From Fimbriiglobus ruber (GTDB lineage: Bacteria > Planctomycetota > Planctomycetia > Gemmatales > Gemmataceae), in assembly GCF_002197845.1 (NCBI RefSeq), contig NZ_NIDE01000005.1, positions 124,001-188,000 of the forward strand: 64,000 nt of DNA, given 5' to 3'. Positions 3,595 through 17,356 of the stretch are shown in pieces; position 1 is the stretch's first letter, and each line of letters starts with the position of its first letter. A program made the translations under genes and the position numbers. The notes beneath the pieces are model-generated. The model ran no database searches and was not told the origin of the DNA. It saw only the letters and a list, made by a program, of their open reading frames with translations.

Positions 3595-6257
3595 TTACTC
3601 GATCGCGAACGTGAACTGCGACGTTTCGCCGACACCGACCGTGACCGACTTCACCGGCCGGCCTTCGGCCATCCGCGTCAGCACCTCTTGCGAGAGCGCC
3701 GGCAGCAGCGTGCCGGTCAGGATGTGGTCGACGTTCCGGGCCCCGCTCTCCACCTCCGTACATCGCTCCGCGATCGTGTCGACGACAGCGGGGGCGTACG
3801 CGAACGCAGCCTTGTGGTTCTGCTTGAGGCGGTCGCCGATCTGGCCGAGCTTCAAGCCGATGATCTTCCGCAACACGTCCTCGCCGAGCGGGAAGTACGG
3901 GACGACGGCCATGCGGCCCAGGAGCGCCGGCTTGAACGCCCGCAGCAAGTCTGGCCGAAGTTGCTCGGCCAACTCCTCCGGCGGCGGCACCTTCCTCGGG
4001 TCCGCGCACGCCTTCATGATGGTGCCGGTGCCGACGTTCGAGGTGAGCAGGATGATCGTGTTCTTGAAGTTCACGTCCTCCCCGTCGTCGTTCTGGAGGA
4101 CGCCCTTGTCGAACACCTGGTAGAAGATCTCCTGCACGCTCTCGTGGGCCTTCTCCACCTCGTCGAGCAGGACCACGCTGTACGGCCGGTTCTTCACCGC
4201 GTTCGTCAGCACGCCCCCCTCGCCATACCCGACGTATCCTTTCGCTGAGCCGACGAGCCGGGAGACCTTGTGCGACTCCTTGTACTCGGACATGTTGACC
4301 ACGATCATGTTCCGGTCGCCGCCGTAGAGCAGGTCGGCGAGAGCCAGGGCGGTCTCCGTCTTGCCCACCCCGGACGGGCCGACCAGGAGGAAGACGCCGA
4401 GCGGCCGGCGGGGGTCGCCGAGGTCGGCGCGGGCGGTGCGGATGCGCTGGGCGATCGCCTCCAGCGCGTGCTTCTGACCGACCACCCGGGCGCTGAGCTT
4501 GTCCGCCAGTGCGAGGACGGTCTGTACCTCGTCGCGGACCATCTTGCCGAGCGGGATGCCCGTCAACCCGGACACCACTTCGGCCACCGCGTGCGAATCG
4601 ACCACCGGGTAAACCAGCGGCGTCTCGCCCTGGACGGCGGCCAGTTCCGCCTGCAGCTTCGCCAGTTCCTCCCGGTCCCGGGCGACCGAATCGGGCACCG
4701 GATCTTGCGCCGTGGCGGTCTCGATCGCCGCCCGCGTGTCGCGGATCTTGCCGACGAGGGCGGCTTCTTTTTCCAGTTGTGCTTGCAGCTTCCCGCGGGA
4801 CTCCTCGGAAAGCTGCTTGCGCTGGCGGAGTTCGCTGAGCCGCTCGTCATGGACCGGGGCGACCCACGCCTCCCGCTCCAGGTAGCCGATCTCGGTGGTG
4901 AGGTGTTCGACCTCCCGGGTCACGTCCTCCAGCGCCGGCGGGGTGGCCGACTGGCTGAGGGCAACGCGGGCGCAGACGGTGTCGAGCAGACTGACCGCCT
5001 TGTCCGGTAACTGGCGATCCGGCATGTACCGGGTTGAGAGTCGAACAGCCGCGGCCACCGCCTCGTCCAGAATGCGGACGGCGTGGTGTTTCTCCAGCAT
5101 GGGGACCAGCCCGCGGAGCATGCGGGTGGCCCGGGCCTCGTCCGGCTCCTCGACCTTGATCTGCTGGAACCGCCGTTTCAGGGCGGCGTCCGTTTCGAAG
5201 TACTTCTTGTATTCGGCGAAGGTGGTAGCCGCGATGGTCCGGAGTTCGCCGCGGGCGAGGGCCGGCTTGAGCAAGTTGGCCGCGTCCCCCTGGCCGGCCT
5301 GGCCGCCGGCCCCGATCAGCGTGTGCGCCTCGTCGATGAACAGGATCACCGGCGCGGGCGACGCCTTCACCTCCTCGATCACGGTCTTGAGCCGGTTCTC
5401 GAATTCGCCCTTCACGCCGGCCCCGGCCTGGAGCAGGCCGAGGTCGAGCGTCCGTAGGGCGACGGGTTTGAGCGGCGGCGGCACGTCCCCAGCGGCGATT
5501 CGCAGGGCCAGTCCCTCGACCACGGCCGTCTTGCCCACCCCGGCGTCGCCGGTGAGGATCGGGGTGTTCTGTCGGCGGCGGGTGAGGATGTCGATCGCCT
5601 GGCGGATCTCCGCGTCCCGGCCGACGACCGGGTCGATCTTCCCTTTGCGCGCCCGGTCCGTGAGGTCGACGGTGAACTGGTCGAGGGCGGGCGTCTTTGA
5701 CCCGACGGCTGGCGCCCCCCCCCGTCGTTGGCGGCTGCCCCGGACCCTACGTCGGCGGCCAGGGCGCGGTCGTACTCATCGCTGTGAATATCCCCCAGCG
5801 TCTTGCGTAGGTCGGCGAGCAGCTGTTCGCCGGGGATGCGGACGAGCGATAGGGAACTGCCGCTGATCCACTGCTTGAGCTTCTGGTCGTTGAGGAGGGC
5901 GGCCAGCAGGTGGCCGCTGCGGACGCTCGTGCTGCCGCACTCGACGGACGCCACGACCCACGCCTCGCGAATCAGGTCGAGGATGTTGGTCGAGAGTGCG
6001 GGGGCCCGGCCGTTGCCAGTCTTGAAGCGGTTTAGTGCGTTGGCGAGTTCGGTCCGGATGGCGGGCAAGTCGGCGTCGTATTGTTCGAACAGAAGCGGGA
6101 TGTCCGAGTTCGGCAGCTCCAGGAATTTGGTCAGCCAGTGTTCGATCTCGACCTCGAAGTGCGTCCGCGACAGGCAGAGGCCGGCGGCCGCTTCGAGGGC
6201 CTTGCGGCAGGTCGCGTTCAGCTTCTCGAACAGCAGGCGCGGGTTGGTGACGGCCAT
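3595..6257 (-). CDS. clpV: ClpV/TssH-type AAA+ ATPase, frameshifted in a C9/G9 run
   Basis: Type VI secretion ClpV recycles the contracted sheath in the cytoplasm. Two reading frames join into one protein. The N-terminal part (ATG 6257, MAVTNPRLLFEKLN) is a Clp-N domain of about 180 aa. The second frame carries D1 with Walker A (DAGVGKTAVVEG) and Walker B (VILFIDEAHTLIG), a coiled middle domain, and D2 with Walker A (VGPSGVGKTETA) and the ClpV-like stretches GYVGYGEGGVLT and FYQVFDKGVLQ. The frames meet at the nine-C tract 5715-5723. One added base gives an uninterrupted 887-aa product, the usual ClpV size, so I suspect a consensus error over a true null. No other tss gene is in the window. 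ClpB is the alternative, but D2 fits ClpV better. Confidence 0.85.
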
Positions 6258-12628: not shown

Positions 12629-15520
12629 CTATTCCAGGATCGCGCCTTTTGAGCGCAGCAACTCGCGGCCTTTCTTTGTGGTATCGAGGCGGACACCTTC
12701 GCAGATTGCACCGACTAGGCTTACCTCAACCAGCCTCGTCCGGTCCAAGACCGCTCGGTCCAAGACCGCCCGGTCCAAGATCGCCCGGTCCAAGATCGCC
12801 TGTTCTAAGAACGCCACTTGCAGACTACTCCTGGCCAGAATCGCCCCAACTAGGCTCGCCCCGGTTAGGACTGCCCGGTCCAGACTTGCCCCGGTTAGGT
12901 CTGCCCGGTCCAGACTTGCCCCGATTAGGCTTGCTCCGTCAAGAAACGCCCCATCCAATCTCGCCCCAGCTAGACTCGCGGCGTGTAATCTCGCCCCATC
13001 CAATCTTGCCCCGGCTAGACTTGTCCTATCAAGGAGTGCTTTATCAAGGATCGCTCTCTCCAGAATCGCCCCGTCCAACCTCGCCCCAGTCAGACTCGCC
13101 CCGTCCAGCCTCGCCCCAGCCAGGCTCGCCCCGTCCAGCCTCGCCCCGTCCAGGCTCGCTCCCTCAAGTATCGCCTTTGACAAATCGCATCCCTGCAGCC
13201 ATTGTTCACTCAATTCGAGGTCGAGTAGCGGAAGTAGATCACTGCGTTCCCAGAATTTTTCGCTCTGTTTGCGGATCCGACGAATGAGATCCGCGGCAGC
13301 TGTTTTGGATGGCCAATCGATACGGACGAGCCAGGATTGCTCAACAAGCCACTTCTGGTACTCCTCACGCCATCGCGATTCGTCCGATTTATCCCCCAGA
13401 ACCCCCGGATGCTGGGGGGGTGAGTGGCGATCTTGGTTTGAACGGAGAGCCCGCGTGCAAGCTCCAATAACACAGAGTAGGGCGTGTTCGGCGCGGGCCG
13501 TCTGCTCGCTCATTTCCCGGAACGGAACGTCCTTTAACTTTTCCGCCGGGAACTGGTGCTGTAGCACGTAGTTGAGCAATGCGACGGCCGCGTCGCGCCA
13601 CGATTTCGCATCGGCCTGTTCTTGTGCAACCCGCCGTGCGACCTCCCCACACAAATGCTCGAAGAGTTCGGCGGTCAGTACACCGGAGCCGGTAATTTGC
13701 AACCATTCCCACAAGAGTTCGTTTTCGTCCCAAACTTCCTTGTTGCGCCGGTCCATTGGGTTTTTGGATTTTCCAAGGCGTACCGCGGCGTCCGCGATCG
13801 CGGTGACGATGCCGACGGCCGCCAGATGTTCCGCGAAGGGTTTGATGGAAAACTCGTAGGTCTCCTTGGCCCCGGGCACACGCCCAACGCTCCGGAAGTA
13901 AAAAGTCAGAAAGAGACCGGTCGTGCCGGTCTGACACGACTTCCGGTAGTCCTCTAGTAGCCCCGTCAGGCGAAGCGGGACCGCAATCCGTTCAGCATCC
14001 GCGACCGTGGCCGTTCGACCGTCGCCCGTGTGCCAGGCGGCAAGACCTAAGAGCCCGAGTAGATCGCGGAAATCCGCGAAGGGAACTTTTGCGATCAGGG
14101 GATGACGGCTCGATTCGTACTCGCGATCATAGACTTTGCGAAGCAGCCAGGCGTACACGTCGGCCATTCGCCTGGGCACACGATCATCGGTGAACGGGTT
14201 CGGCGGGACCGGGTTTTCCGGTGCGTTCTCCGTCTTCGATGGCGTTTCACGATCCCGATAAGCGAGTGCGAGCAGGAAGTTTAAGAGCGGCTGTGCAGTA
14301 AAGATCGCGAGCTTTTCGTCTCTGAGAACCTCGGGCATCGCGGTATCGGAGTTTCCGAGGGCCAAGGCGTAACGCTTCCACCATTCGTCTCTGCGGTCGA
14401 TCTTCAGCTCGGCTTTGGGTCCGAGATACGCAACCCCGTTAGGGGAACGATCACCTTTGGCAATGAAGAACGGCAAGAGGTGATAGAGTTGCTTCACATC
14501 ACGAAAGACTTCTGCGGCATGGTCGGCGGCAATCGGGCGACCGCAGAACAAGATGTGAAGCGAACGGTGGGCTCGCAAGCACCGATCCAGTGCGTATTTC
14601 ACGTCTTCGGCAAAGGCCTGAGCCGCTTGCCGCCCCCCCTCACCTTGCTGACTCAACTCGTCGAGCCCATCCAGGATCAGGAGCGTGGGGCCGTGTTCGG
14701 CTTTCGGATCGAGAACTCCGGGCGGGTACAAGAGTTCGCTGGCGGCTTTGTCCAGGGCCGCCGCGACCGGCAAATTCAAATCTAGCCGATGCAGGGGAAT
14801 GAACAGGACGTTCCGCCCGCCTTTCTCGATCACTTCCGCGGCGAACATGCGGGCTGTCGACGATTTCCCAGCTCCCGGCGGACCGACGAGGATACGCACG
14901 TTATCCTGAGACTGACCGAGCCATTCCTTCAATGCCTCCAACACTCGAATGACGTGCCGTTTCTCGTGGAGCGGTTTTCCGGACCCATCGCGGCGTGGTG
15001 CTGTCGAAGTGCGAGGGGATTCCACGTCTGAAGGGGCATCGTCATCCTCTGGGTCGGAAACGAACTCCGACCAGTAGCCGATCGGCTCAACGAACACATC
15101 CGGGAGACTGAACGGCTCGCCGAACAGCGACTCGCGCAAGCGGTTGAGAAACGCTTCGTGCCCAGCGTTCCACCGCTGGTCGACGGCGTCTGCGACATCC
15201 TCAATGGCGATGGCTGTGCCGTAGGCCGTCATGCGGTCGCGCTTGTCGAGGGCTGCCTGGATGTCCTCGTCGGACACTTGGCGGACCGGAGGTCCGTTTG
15301 CTGAAAGACGATAGACCGCAAGCAGACTTTTCTCACGCATTTCTTTGATCGTCACGCTGACCGTGGCCTGCGAGAGTTGCCCCTGCCGCTTATTAGCCCG
15401 GCGCGTATTGATTCGCTCGCCAATTTCGGAAGGTCTGAGCGGCAAAGGGTTTCCGCTTTCGTCCTTGTTGTCCCAGAGGATGTGAAGGAATTCGCGATGT
15501 GCAGCGGAAACGGTTATCAT
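12629..15520 (-). CDS. wHTH-NACHT/STAND ATPase with C-terminal pentapeptide repeats
   Basis: 963 aa from ATG 15520 (a GTG nine bases upstream is possible). Residues about 1-75 look like a winged helix-turn-helix (AAHREFLHILW, LRPSEIGERI, QATVSVTIKEMREKSLLAVY). A linker of about 100 residues follows. The NTPase core has Walker A GPPGAGKSS (about 213-221) and the NACHT-type Walker B LLILDGLDEL (about 280-289). A helical middle part runs to about residue 775. About 33 pentapeptides of the A(S/R/I)LDG type (about 778-946) should fold as a right-handed beta-helix. NACHT/STAND proteins are signal-sensing ATPase switches, several known in anti-phage defence. Here the sensor would be the beta-helix and the wHTH the output. 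It is divergent from a small gene through an AT-rich phased operator region. The function is not established. Confidence 0.85.
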   Translation of the reverse strand: MITVSAAHREFLHILWDNKDESGNPLPLRPSEIGERINTRRANKRQGQLSQATVSVTIKEMREKSLLAVYRLSANGPPVRQVSDEDIQAALDKRDRMTAYGTAIAIEDVADAVDQRWNAGHEAFLNRLRESLFGEPFSLPDVFVEPIGYWSEFVSDPEDDDAPSDVESPRTSTAPRRDGSGKPLHEKRHVIRVLEALKEWLGQSQDNVRILVGPPGAGKSSTARMFAAEVIEKGGRNVLFIPLHRLDLNLPVAAALDKAASELLYPPGVLDPKAEHGPTLLILDGLDELSQQGEGGRQAAQAFAEDVKYALDRCLRAHRSLHILFCGRPIAADHAAEVFRDVKQLYHLLPFFIAKGDRSPNGVAYLGPKAELKIDRRDEWWKRYALALGNSDTAMPEVLRDEKLAIFTAQPLLNFLLALAYRDRETPSKTENAPENPVPPNPFTDDRVPRRMADVYAWLLRKVYDREYESSRHPLIAKVPFADFRDLLGLLGLAAWHTGDGRTATVADAERIAVPLRLTGLLEDYRKSCQTGTTGLFLTFYFRSVGRVPGAKETYEFSIKPFAEHLAAVGIVTAIADAAVRLGKSKNPMDRRNKEVWDENELLWEWLQITGSGVLTAELFEHLCGEVARRVAQEQADAKSWRDAAVALLNYVLQHQFPAEKLKDVPFREMSEQTARAEHALLCVIGACTRALRSNQDRHSPPQHPGVLGDKSDESRWREEYQKWLVEQSWLVRIDWPSKTAAADLIRRIRKQSEKFWERSDLLPLLDLELSEQWLQGCDLSKAILEGASLDGARLDGASLAGARLDGASLTGARLDGAILERAILDKALLDRTSLAGARLDGARLHAASLAGARLDGAFLDGASLIGASLDRADLTGASLDRAVLTGASLVGAILARSSLQVAFLEQAILDRAILDRAVLDRAVLDRTRLVEVSLVGAICEGVRLDTTKKGRELLRSKGAILE
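12683..13189 (-). repeat. Coding tandem repeat: about 33 pentapeptide (15-bp) units
   Basis: On the plus strand the tract shows repeated variants of TCGCCCCGTCCAG and CGCCCGGTCCAAGA. These are the reverse of 15-bp codon units encoding A-x-L-D-x pentapeptides of the NACHT protein. Some units are near-identical at DNA level (for example 12750-12800), suggesting recent unit duplication and possible length variation. Confidence 0.85.
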
Positions 15521-15532
15521 TTTGCACACGAC

Positions 15533-15626
15533 AAATGAAGTTTCTTAATTTTTTCTCGTTATTCATTTACCTTATGCCGCCAAATGCTATAAATGAATTG
15601 GCGGTCAAGGATCACATATTTCATTT
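15533..15626. promoter_or_regulatory. Four-site 29-bp-phased operator array in a divergent promoter
   Basis: The 7-mer TTCATTT (or its complement AAATGAA) occurs at 15533, 15562, 15591 and 15620. The starts are exactly 29 bp apart and orientation alternates (-,+,-,+). The extended site is close to ATAAATGAAT. A 7-bp inverted repeat, CCGCCAA (15577-15583) and TTGGCGG (15598-15604), brackets the third site. The 124-bp region is far more AT-rich than its surroundings and contains both promoters. The regularity is seen directly; a regulator binding it (possibly the winged-helix NACHT protein itself) is inference. Confidence 0.65.
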
Positions 15627-15644
15627 ATACGCGAGGATTTCGCC

Positions 15645-16022
15645 GTGTCACGCCTTAATCACTCGTTCGAGTACCGAAGTCGAGGAAAACAAACGCAGGA
15701 GGCGGGCCAGAAAAGTCGCGGTGACAGGAACCGTCGATCGAGCACGGGTGGCGGACTCGCCGTGGCGCTCGGCATGGAAGACGGGCCGCCCTCGTGGCGG
15801 AACCGCGTTTCCGCGTGGCTAGGTCTCGCCGCGACATCGCGGTTGAGCGCCAAAGAAAAGCAAGATCACCAGGAATTTCTAGCCTGGGCCAAGGAACTCG
15901 ACCCGAAAGACCCCAACGTTGCCGCCTTCCTCCGGCAGTGCATCAACCACAGCCGCGAGGCCCTGGACCTGGAACCGGTCGCGGCCACGGACGTGCCCGG
16001 ACCGGACTATTTCCTGGGCTAA
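15645..16022 (+). CDS. Small protein of unknown function, divergent from the NACHT gene
   Basis: 125 aa from GTG 15645, supported by GAGGA at 15633-15637 with 7-bp spacing. The N-terminal 45 residues are basic and low-complexity (Arg/Gly/Gln/Ser). The C-terminal 75 residues look like a compact helical domain (SWRNRVSAWLGLA, KEKQDHQEFLAWAKELDPKDPN, FLRQCINHSREALDLEP). There are no TM helices, signal peptide or enzyme motif. It shares the phased operator region with the NACHT-pentapeptide gene and is followed by a good terminator, so it is probably a real single-gene transcript. It could be a partner or regulator of the ATPase; I do not recognise a family. Confidence 0.6.
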   Translation: MSRLNHSFEYRSRGKQTQEAGQKSRGDRNRRSSTGGGLAVALGMEDGPPSWRNRVSAWLGLAATSRLSAKEKQDHQEFLAWAKELDPKDPNVAAFLRQCINHSREALDLEPVAATDVPGPDYFLG

Positions 16023-16043: not shown

Positions 16044-16070
16044 GACCCTGTGGGGTGCCCACAGGGTCTT
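16044..16070 (+). terminator. Rho-independent terminator
   Basis: GACCCTGTGGG and CCCACAGGGTC form a perfect 11-bp stem with a GTG loop, followed by a short T-containing tail. It lies 22 bases after the small gene stop. Confidence 0.75.
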
Positions 16071-16242: not shown

Positions 16243-16530
16243 ATGGCGACGAAACGAAAAACACACACGGCGGCGTTCAAGGCCCAGGTCGCACTGGCAG
16301 CGATCAAGGGGGATCGGACCATCAACCAGGTGGCTTCCCAGTACGATGTCCACCCGACCCTGATCCACGCCTGGAAGAAGCAGTTACTGGCCGGAGCGGA
16401 GACGGTGTTCGCGTCCGGGGTCAAGCCGACCGGACCGCCGGACGACAAGACCGACGAGTTGTACGCGCAGATCGGGCGACTCAAGGTCGAACTCGACTGG
16501 GTGAAAAAAAAATCTGCCGCCCTCGGTTGA
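16243..16530 (+). CDS. IS3 transposase OrfA (HTH_Tnp_1)
   Basis: 95 aa, DNA-binding half of the IS3 transposase. The HTH core is TAAFKAQVALAAIKGDRTINQVASQYDVHPTLIHAWKKQL read in two pieces (about residues 9-47), followed by a leucine-zipper-like segment (ELYAQIGRLKVELDWVKKK) used for multimerisation. The ORF runs over the A9 tract at 16504-16512 and stops soon after. In IS3 elements, ribosomes slip -1 on such tracts to make the OrfAB fusion. The start ATG lies 60 bp inside the left end. Confidence 0.9.
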   Translation: MATKRKTHTAAFKAQVALAAIKGDRTINQVASQYDVHPTLIHAWKKQLLAGAETVFASGVKPTGPPDDKTDELYAQIGRLKVELDWVKKKSAALG

Positions 16531-17356
16531 CGCCCGGCGGGCTCTGATCGACGACGATCACCCCGCGCTGAGCATCCGTCGGCAGTGCGCACTGGTCGGC
16601 CTGAACCGGTCGACCCGGTACTACGACCCGGTCCCGGAGACGGCCGAGAATCTCCGGCGGATGCGGTGGATCGATGAGCAATACACCCGGTGCCCGTTCT
16701 ATGGCAGCCGGCGGATCACCGCGTGGCTGGCGGGTCAGGGCCATGAGGTGAACCGCAAGCGGGTCCAGCGGCTCCTGCGGATCATGGGGTTGGAAGCCAT
16801 CTACCCGCGGCCGAAATTGTCCGCCGGGCCGGCCCATAAGGTGTACCCATACCTACTCCGGGGCGTCGCGATCGATCGGGTCAACCAGGTCTGGTCGGCC
16901 GATATTACATATGTCCCGCTGCCGTCCGGGTTCATGTACCTGGCCGCGACGATTGACTGGTTCAGCCGGTCTGTCATCGCCTGGCGGTTGTCGAACACGC
17001 TCGACGGGTCGTTCTGCCAGGACATGCTGGACGACGCGTTGGGCCGGGGCACGCCGGAGGTGTTCAACACCGATCAGGGCGTCCAGTTTACGGCCCGGAG
17101 TTGGATCGACCGGGTGGAGACGGCCGGGGCGTCGGTCAGCATGGATGGTCGCGGGCGGTGTCTAGATAATGTATTCGTCGAACGGCTGTGGCGAAGTGTC
17201 AAATACGAAGATGTGTATCTACGGGGGTACGAGTCGGTGTCGGCGCTGACGAGCGGGTTACGGTCGTACTTCGCGTTCTACAACGGGCAGCGGTTGCATC
17301 AGTCGTTGGACTACCGGACGCCCGCGGCTGTGTACGAGGGGACGTCGGGGGGATGA
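16511..17356 (+). CDS. IS3 transposase OrfB (DDE integrase), made by -1 frameshift
   Basis: About 280 residues. The frame is open from the A9 tract and continues without a stop into the integrase domain; the first ATG is at 16661, but the conserved stretch SIRRQCALVGLNRSTRYYD upstream of it shows translation must begin earlier, by frameshift from OrfA. Catalytic residues are visible as D in WSADITYVPL, D in VFNTDQGVQFTA, and E in DNVFVERLWRSVKYED. The C-terminus YFAFYNGQRLHQSLDYRTPAAVY is typical of IS3 orfB. The reading frame is intact, so the element may still be active. Confidence 0.9.
   Translation, partial: NLPPSVDARRALIDDDHPALSIRRQCALVGLNRSTRYYDPVPETAENLRRMRWIDEQYTRCPFYGSRRITAWLAGQGHEVNRKRVQRLLRIMGLEAIYPRPKLSAGPAHKVYPYLLRGVAIDRVNQVWSADITYVPLPSGFMYLAATIDWFSRSVIAWRLSNTLDGSFCQDMLDDALGRGTPEVFNTDQGVQFTARSWIDRVETAGASVSMDGRGRCLDNVFVERLWRSVKYEDVYLRGYESVSALTSGLRSYFAFYNGQRLHQSLDYRTPAAVYEGTSGG

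What the first reader, a model, noticed from the sequence alone, without database searches (positions are those of the whole stretch)
15533..15626. Four TTCATTT half-sites exactly 29 bp apart in alternating orientation
The 7-mer occurs at 15533, 15562, 15591 and 15620 with alternate strands, in the divergent promoter of the NACHT gene and a small unknown gene. Exact periodicity in a 94-bp window is unlikely by chance in a genome this GC-rich, and implies two or more dimers binding cooperatively. The NACHT protein's own winged helix is a candidate binder.
Basis: partly seen in the sequence, partly recalled or inferred. Interest (0 to 1): 0.75.

Follow-up and report, generated by a model that had tools for sequence, protein, structure and literature searches.

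The report
Local four-site operator beside NACHT gene
Between an unusual immune-receptor-like gene and a small unknown gene, one bacterial genome carries four copies of the same 7-letter word, exactly 29 letters apart and flipping strand each time; this is far from chance, occurs nowhere else we could search, and is best read as a private on/off switch for these two genes, but what binds it is unproven.

Summary
TTCATTT/AAATGAA lies at 15533(-), 15562(+), 15591(-) and 15620(+), strictly alternating, 29 bp start to start, filling the 124-bp intergenic of a divergent pair. It is not chance at the level of this genome: expected equal-spaced quads of any 7-mer per such intergenic about 1e-7, and it is the only alternating non-tandem quad in 1.26 Mb of the same genome. 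Spacers are unrelated, so it is not a tandem duplication. In the whole 12.36-Mb genome only one other inverted pair of this word exists within 8-36 bp (terminator-like), so there is no regulon of such pairs: the site is private. Two of the four sites extend to TATAAATGAA and overlap the best -10 candidates of the two facing promoters. Best reading: a local, probably autoregulatory repressor operator, comparable to AbiEi/Rv2827c and CapS operators. Conservation cannot support it: the N-terminal domain and the small protein are orphans, the four NACHT-core relatives lack that domain and these sites, and the array occurs in none of 84,980 species or the viral contigs. Cooperative dimers on one DNA face are not implied: 29 bp is 2.76 turns. 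The wHTH assignment is only suggestive (MarR E=0.11; AlphaFold pLDDT 45).

The parts
15533..15539 (-). half-site 1 (CAAATGAA context; weakest), 13-19 nt upstream of the NACHT ATG, i.e. over its ribosome-binding region
15562..15568 (+). half-site 2 (TTCATTTA)
15591..15597 (-). half-site 3 (TATAAATGAA, 15588-15597); its TATAAA is a candidate -10 box of the + strand promoter
15620..15626 (+). half-site 4 (TTCATTTATA, 15620-15629; minus strand TATAAATGAA); candidate -10 box of the - strand promoter
15566..15593 (+). promoter-like TTTACC-N16-TATAAA, for the small gene (consensus match only; 9 of 12)
   Evidence: such scores are common in shuffles
15624..15651 (-). promoter-like GTGACA-N16-TATAAA, for the NACHT gene (10 of 12; a best score at least this high in 10% of shuffles)
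15577..15604 (.). perfect 7-bp GC-rich inverted repeat CCGCCAA-N14-TTGGCGG, centred at 15590.5 on the + strand -10 candidate; alternative operator, or hairpin in the NACHT 5' leader
   Evidence: (RNA hairpin z -2.7)
12629..15520 (-). NACHT/STAND NTPase gene: residues 1-75 HTH-like, NACHT about 200-350, pentapeptide repeats about 770-930 (963 aa); GTG 15529 is an alternative start
15645..16022 (+). small orphan gene (125 aa, GTG start, AGGA at 15634-15637); basic N-terminus, predicted helical C-terminus at low confidence
16044..16068 (.). intrinsic terminator-like hairpin downstream of the small gene (the scan listed it on the - strand; the stem is symmetric)

Best explanation
A private operator for the divergent NACHT / small-gene pair. 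A locally encoded DNA-binding protein, most likely the N-terminal HTH-like domain of the NACHT protein itself, contacts each (T)AAATGAA element; occupied sites 3 and 4 mask the -10 boxes of the two facing promoters and site 1 lies over the NACHT translation-start region, so both genes are held low (negative autoregulation) until the NACHT ATPase/pentapeptide part changes state, for example on sensing infection. Shown: the sites, their geometry, statistical strength, uniqueness and overlap with promoter-like boxes. Inferred: promoters, binder, repression, and the induction signal.
For: Exact alternating 29-bp register with unrelated spacers. Genome-wide, three of the four inverted pairs with 8-36 bp spacers lie in these 94 bp and the fourth is a terminator-like palindrome; relaxed pairs match the control level (13 v 11), hence no regulon of pairs and a local regulator is likelier than a global one. 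TATAAATGAA at sites 3 and 4 coincides with the only two promoter candidates in the region, one per strand. NACHT residues 46-72 give a weak MarR recognition-helix match and predicted helices 6-17, 30-45, 58-72. Both genes have low GC3 (0.66, 0.72) against 0.82-0.92 for ordinary flanking genes, as expected of one acquired module with its own control. Precedent in wHTH autorepressors: Rv2827c, four 23-bp repeats within 131 bp, overlapping its promoter (PMC7319586); CapS, AT-rich half-sites flanking a -10 (PMC13373217).
Against: MarR match E=0.11, no PDB relative, AF2 pLDDT 45: the wHTH is not established. No homologous locus shows the array, so selection on it is not demonstrated. 29-bp spacing is off helical phase. 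Promoter-like boxes are no better than shuffles would often give. A different inverted repeat overlaps site 3. Flanks of the 7-mers agree only at chance level.
Confidence: 0.42

Rival explanations
1. A real operator array, but bound by another protein: the small 125-aa product (basic N-terminus) or a trans-acting regulator encoded elsewhere.
For: The sites are real and lie equally upstream of both genes; the NACHT HTH is weak; the small protein has a basic N-terminus and helical C-terminus.
Against: The small protein has no HTH or family match. A global regulator would be expected to have other such sites; none with paired sites. Single-site targets were not tested.
Confidence: 0.25
2. The 7-mers are by-products of AT-rich promoter elements (TATAAA-type -10 boxes and their surroundings on both strands); the equal spacing is coincidence.
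For: Sites 3 and 4 are TATAAATGAA on opposite strands in promoter position; intergenic is 36% GC in a 65% GC window; four copies of some 7-mer occur in 2% of shuffles.
Against: Explains two sites only; equal spacing of four randomly placed sites has probability 4e-4, alternation 1/8; no other alternating quad in 1.26 Mb of the same genome.
Confidence: 0.22
3. The functional operator is the GC-rich palindrome CCGCCAA-N14-TTGGCGG (15577-15604), centred on the + strand -10 candidate, with arms 21 bp apart (two turns); the TTCATTT array is incidental or secondary.
For: Perfect 7-bp arms in helical phase around the -10; RNA hairpin z -2.7.
Against: A single 7-bp inverted repeat in a region this long is not rare; it has no second copy here and does not share the array's dyads.
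Confidence: 0.08
4. Remnant of a tandem or inverted duplication.
For: Same-orientation sites are 58 bp apart.
Against: 58-bp units match 23 of 58, i.e. 9 of 44 outside the words; no drift or indel signature.
Confidence: 0.03

Closest known systems
AbiEi / Rv2827c antitoxin autoregulatory operators (type IV toxin-antitoxin)
   Same: wHTH-containing protein of a conflict system represses its own promoter through repeats in inverted orientation; Rv2827c uses four repeats within 131 bp overlapping the promoter, at 27 and 36 bp start to start (AbiEi 26; added up from repeat and gap lengths in PMC7319586), close to the 29 bp here
   Different: their repeats are 23 bp long and spacings unequal; here only 7-9 bp are shared, spacing is uniform, genes are divergent, and no AbiE domain is present
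CapK/CapS control of Bub immune operons
   Same: wHTH repressor next to an immune operon; AT-rich half-sites flanking the -10 box; more than one spacing (PMC13373217)
   Different: CapS is a separate STAS-wHTH protein with 1-bp and 10-bp gaps; here the candidate HTH is fused to the NACHT protein and gaps are 22 bp
C.Csp231I restriction-modification controller operators
   Same: four half-sites making two operators with a wide A/T-rich gap ahead of a defence gene (PMC3115060)
   Different: half-sites are CTAAG-N5-CTTAG and about 18 bp separates the operators; not an evenly alternating array; no C protein here
bNACHT / bacterial NLR-related proteins
   Same: central NACHT NTPase with variable N-terminal domain, some proven in phage defence (PMC12169576)
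   Different: HTH-like N-terminus instead of a nuclease; pentapeptide repeats; no PADLOC NACHT model hit

Membership tests
   29 bp = 274 degrees at 10.5 bp/turn; 58 bp = 189 degrees
   no orthologous locus; the four NACHT-core relatives lack the N-terminal domain and the word upstream; array absent elsewhere
   needs EMSA or footprinting
MarR-like winged helix (NACHT residues 1-75) | profile match above curated cut-off | tested here: not met
   MarR 12.9-13.1 bits against 24.6-27
MarR-like winged helix (NACHT residues 1-75) | wHTH fold | tested here: inconclusive
   helices at 6-17, 30-45, 58-72 but pLDDT 45
NACHT/STAND NTPase | NACHT P-loop NTPase domain | tested here: inconclusive
   PF05729 E=5.7e-5, 23.4 bits, below the 26.7 cut-off; Walker A GPPGAGKSS and Walker B LLILDGLDE visible in the sequence
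NACHT/STAND NTPase | C-terminal repeat domain | tested here: met
   Pentapeptide PF00805 E=1.2e-32
AbiEi/Rv2827c-type operator | 23-bp repeats in inverted pairs | tested here: not met
   shared core 7-9 bp; flanks at chance, 7 of 30 columns v 7.4 expected

The most novel reading that the evidence does not exclude
Probability: 0.12. Interest if true: 0.7.

Novelty: new member of a known kind. Interest (0 to 1): 0.4.

Why it matters
If the NACHT protein's N-terminal domain binds this array, a bacterial NLR relative would be shown to control its own gene through a fused DNA-binding domain; the immune operons used here for comparison are controlled by separate repressors such as CapS. It would give a compact reporter for the on/off state of a bacterial NACHT protein. 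If another protein binds, it is an ordinary local operator of an acquired gene pair.

Tried and rejected
Tandem duplication: rejected, spacers unrelated. Regulon of the paired motif: none (one search used a wrong 20-bp gap and is ignored). Conservation: full protein, NACHT core, N-terminal 163 aa and small protein searched in family, class and phylum genomes; only the NACHT core has relatives (residues 187-692, 32-38%), and the best weak hits to the other two that were read (six of them) are unrelated or spurious frames. Genome-contig and viral scans with the proteins found nothing; one plasmid hit to the NTPase only. Array pattern: absent from the contigs of 84,980 species, from viral contigs and from 391 other phylum genomes. 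Structure predictions were too poor for a fold search. RNA structure of the whole leader is not unusual (z about -1). An ORF through the intergenic (15535-15822 +) has non-coding composition there (GC by codon position 0.33/0.22/0.47).

Full report
Observation. The four words are exactly as described: AAATGAA 15533-15539, TTCATTT 15562-15568, AAATGAA 15591-15597, TTCATTT 15620-15626. They fill the 124-bp intergenic (36% GC in a 65.5% GC window) between the NACHT gene (ATG at 15520, minus) and a small plus-strand gene (GTG at 15645, AGGA 15634-15637).

Chance. Dinucleotide shuffles of the intergenic often contain some 7-mer at least three or at least four times (9% and 2%), but none of 20000 had three in equal spacing. 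The analytic expectation of any equal-spaced quad is 1.1e-7 for this intergenic and about 1e-3 over 8000 such intergenics (an assumed number); alternating quads are 16 times rarer. As an empirical control, 1.264 Mb of the same genome holds 143 equal-spaced 7-mer quads, all but three in tandem-like repeats; this is one of the three and the only alternating one. The spacers are unrelated (6 of 22 identical) and the flanks agree at chance level, so the shared unit is 7 bp, extending to TAAATGAA in three sites and TATAAATGAA in two. The feature is real, with the caution that it was chosen after reading a large amount of sequence.

Privacy. In the whole 12.36-Mb genome, AAATGAA-N8-36-TTCATTT occurs at three places, two of them here, and TTCATTT-N8-36-AAATGAA at one, here. 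The remaining one (contig 14) lies in a terminator-like palindrome. Allowing three mismatches in the longer pair gives 13 matches against 11 for the reversed control. No regulon of paired sites exists, which favours a regulator encoded on the spot. Single-site targets were not tested.

Anatomy. A relaxed scan finds one promoter candidate per strand: TTTACC-N16-TATAAA (15566-15593, +) and GTGACA-N16-TATAAA (15651-15624, -); each -10 is the start of a TATAAATGAA element. The two would fire towards each other with overlapping starts, and a protein on sites 3 and 4 would block both. A best score this good arises in 10% of shuffles, so this is suggestive only. Site 1 lies 13-19 nt upstream of the NACHT ATG. 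A separate perfect inverted repeat, CCGCCAA-N14-TTGGCGG, is centred on the plus-strand -10 and could be another operator or a leader hairpin.

Geometry. 29 bp is 2.76 turns at 10.5 bp/turn; neighbours are about 86 degrees apart and same-orientation sites about opposite. This does not favour dimers packed along one face, and 22 bp between 7-mers is far wider than an ordinary wHTH dimer site (general knowledge). Binding of monomers to inverted repeats, as reported for AbiEi (23-bp repeats 3 bp apart), and the Rv2827c promoter (four 23-bp repeats with 13- and 4-bp gaps; negative cooperativity), are a closer precedent (PMC7319586). CapS shows that one wHTH repressor can use two interfaces and two spacings in an immune operon (PMC13373217).

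Genes. The NACHT protein has a STAND-type NTPase domain (below the Pfam cut-off, with clear Walker motifs) and pentapeptide repeats. Its first 75 residues look like a wHTH by secondary structure and a sub-threshold MarR match but have no recognisable relatives. Four proteins in the class share only residues 187-692 (32-38%); all have a different N-terminus and no AAATGAA upstream, so the N-terminal part has been exchanged, as is usual for STAND proteins. The small protein is an orphan. Both genes have GC3 0.66-0.72 against 0.82-0.92 for ordinary flanking genes, and an IS3-like transposase lies next door (named from its translation): probably a laterally acquired pair.

Conservation. The decisive comparative test failed for lack of material, not by contradiction: the array pattern is absent from 84,980 species' contigs, from viral contigs, and, with three mismatches, from 391 other genomes of the phylum, but so is the gene pair as far as it was searched.

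Verdict. A genuine, statistically strong, locus-private site array, best explained as an autoregulatory operator of the divergent pair (0.42), with a differently bound operator (0.25) and promoter-box coincidence (0.22) as the main rivals.

Noticed in passing
12629-15520 (-) and L038, L039, L040, L143: A small class-wide family of NACHT-pentapeptide proteins shares residues 187-692 while this one has a wholly different N-terminal region: a domain swap at about residue 187.
   Followed up: partly
12629-16022: NACHT gene and small gene have markedly lower GC3 (0.66, 0.72) than flanking genes (0.82-0.92), next to IS3-like transposase frames at 16243-17356: likely horizontal acquisition.
   Followed up: partly
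15577-15604: Perfect GC-rich inverted repeat CCGCCAA-N14-TTGGCGG centred on the plus-strand -10 candidate.
   Followed up: partly
L041 about 5042-5079: The only other AAATGAA/TTCATTT inverted pair of the genome (spacers of 8-36 bp) lies in an extended palindrome with a T-run that looks like a terminator.
   Followed up: partly
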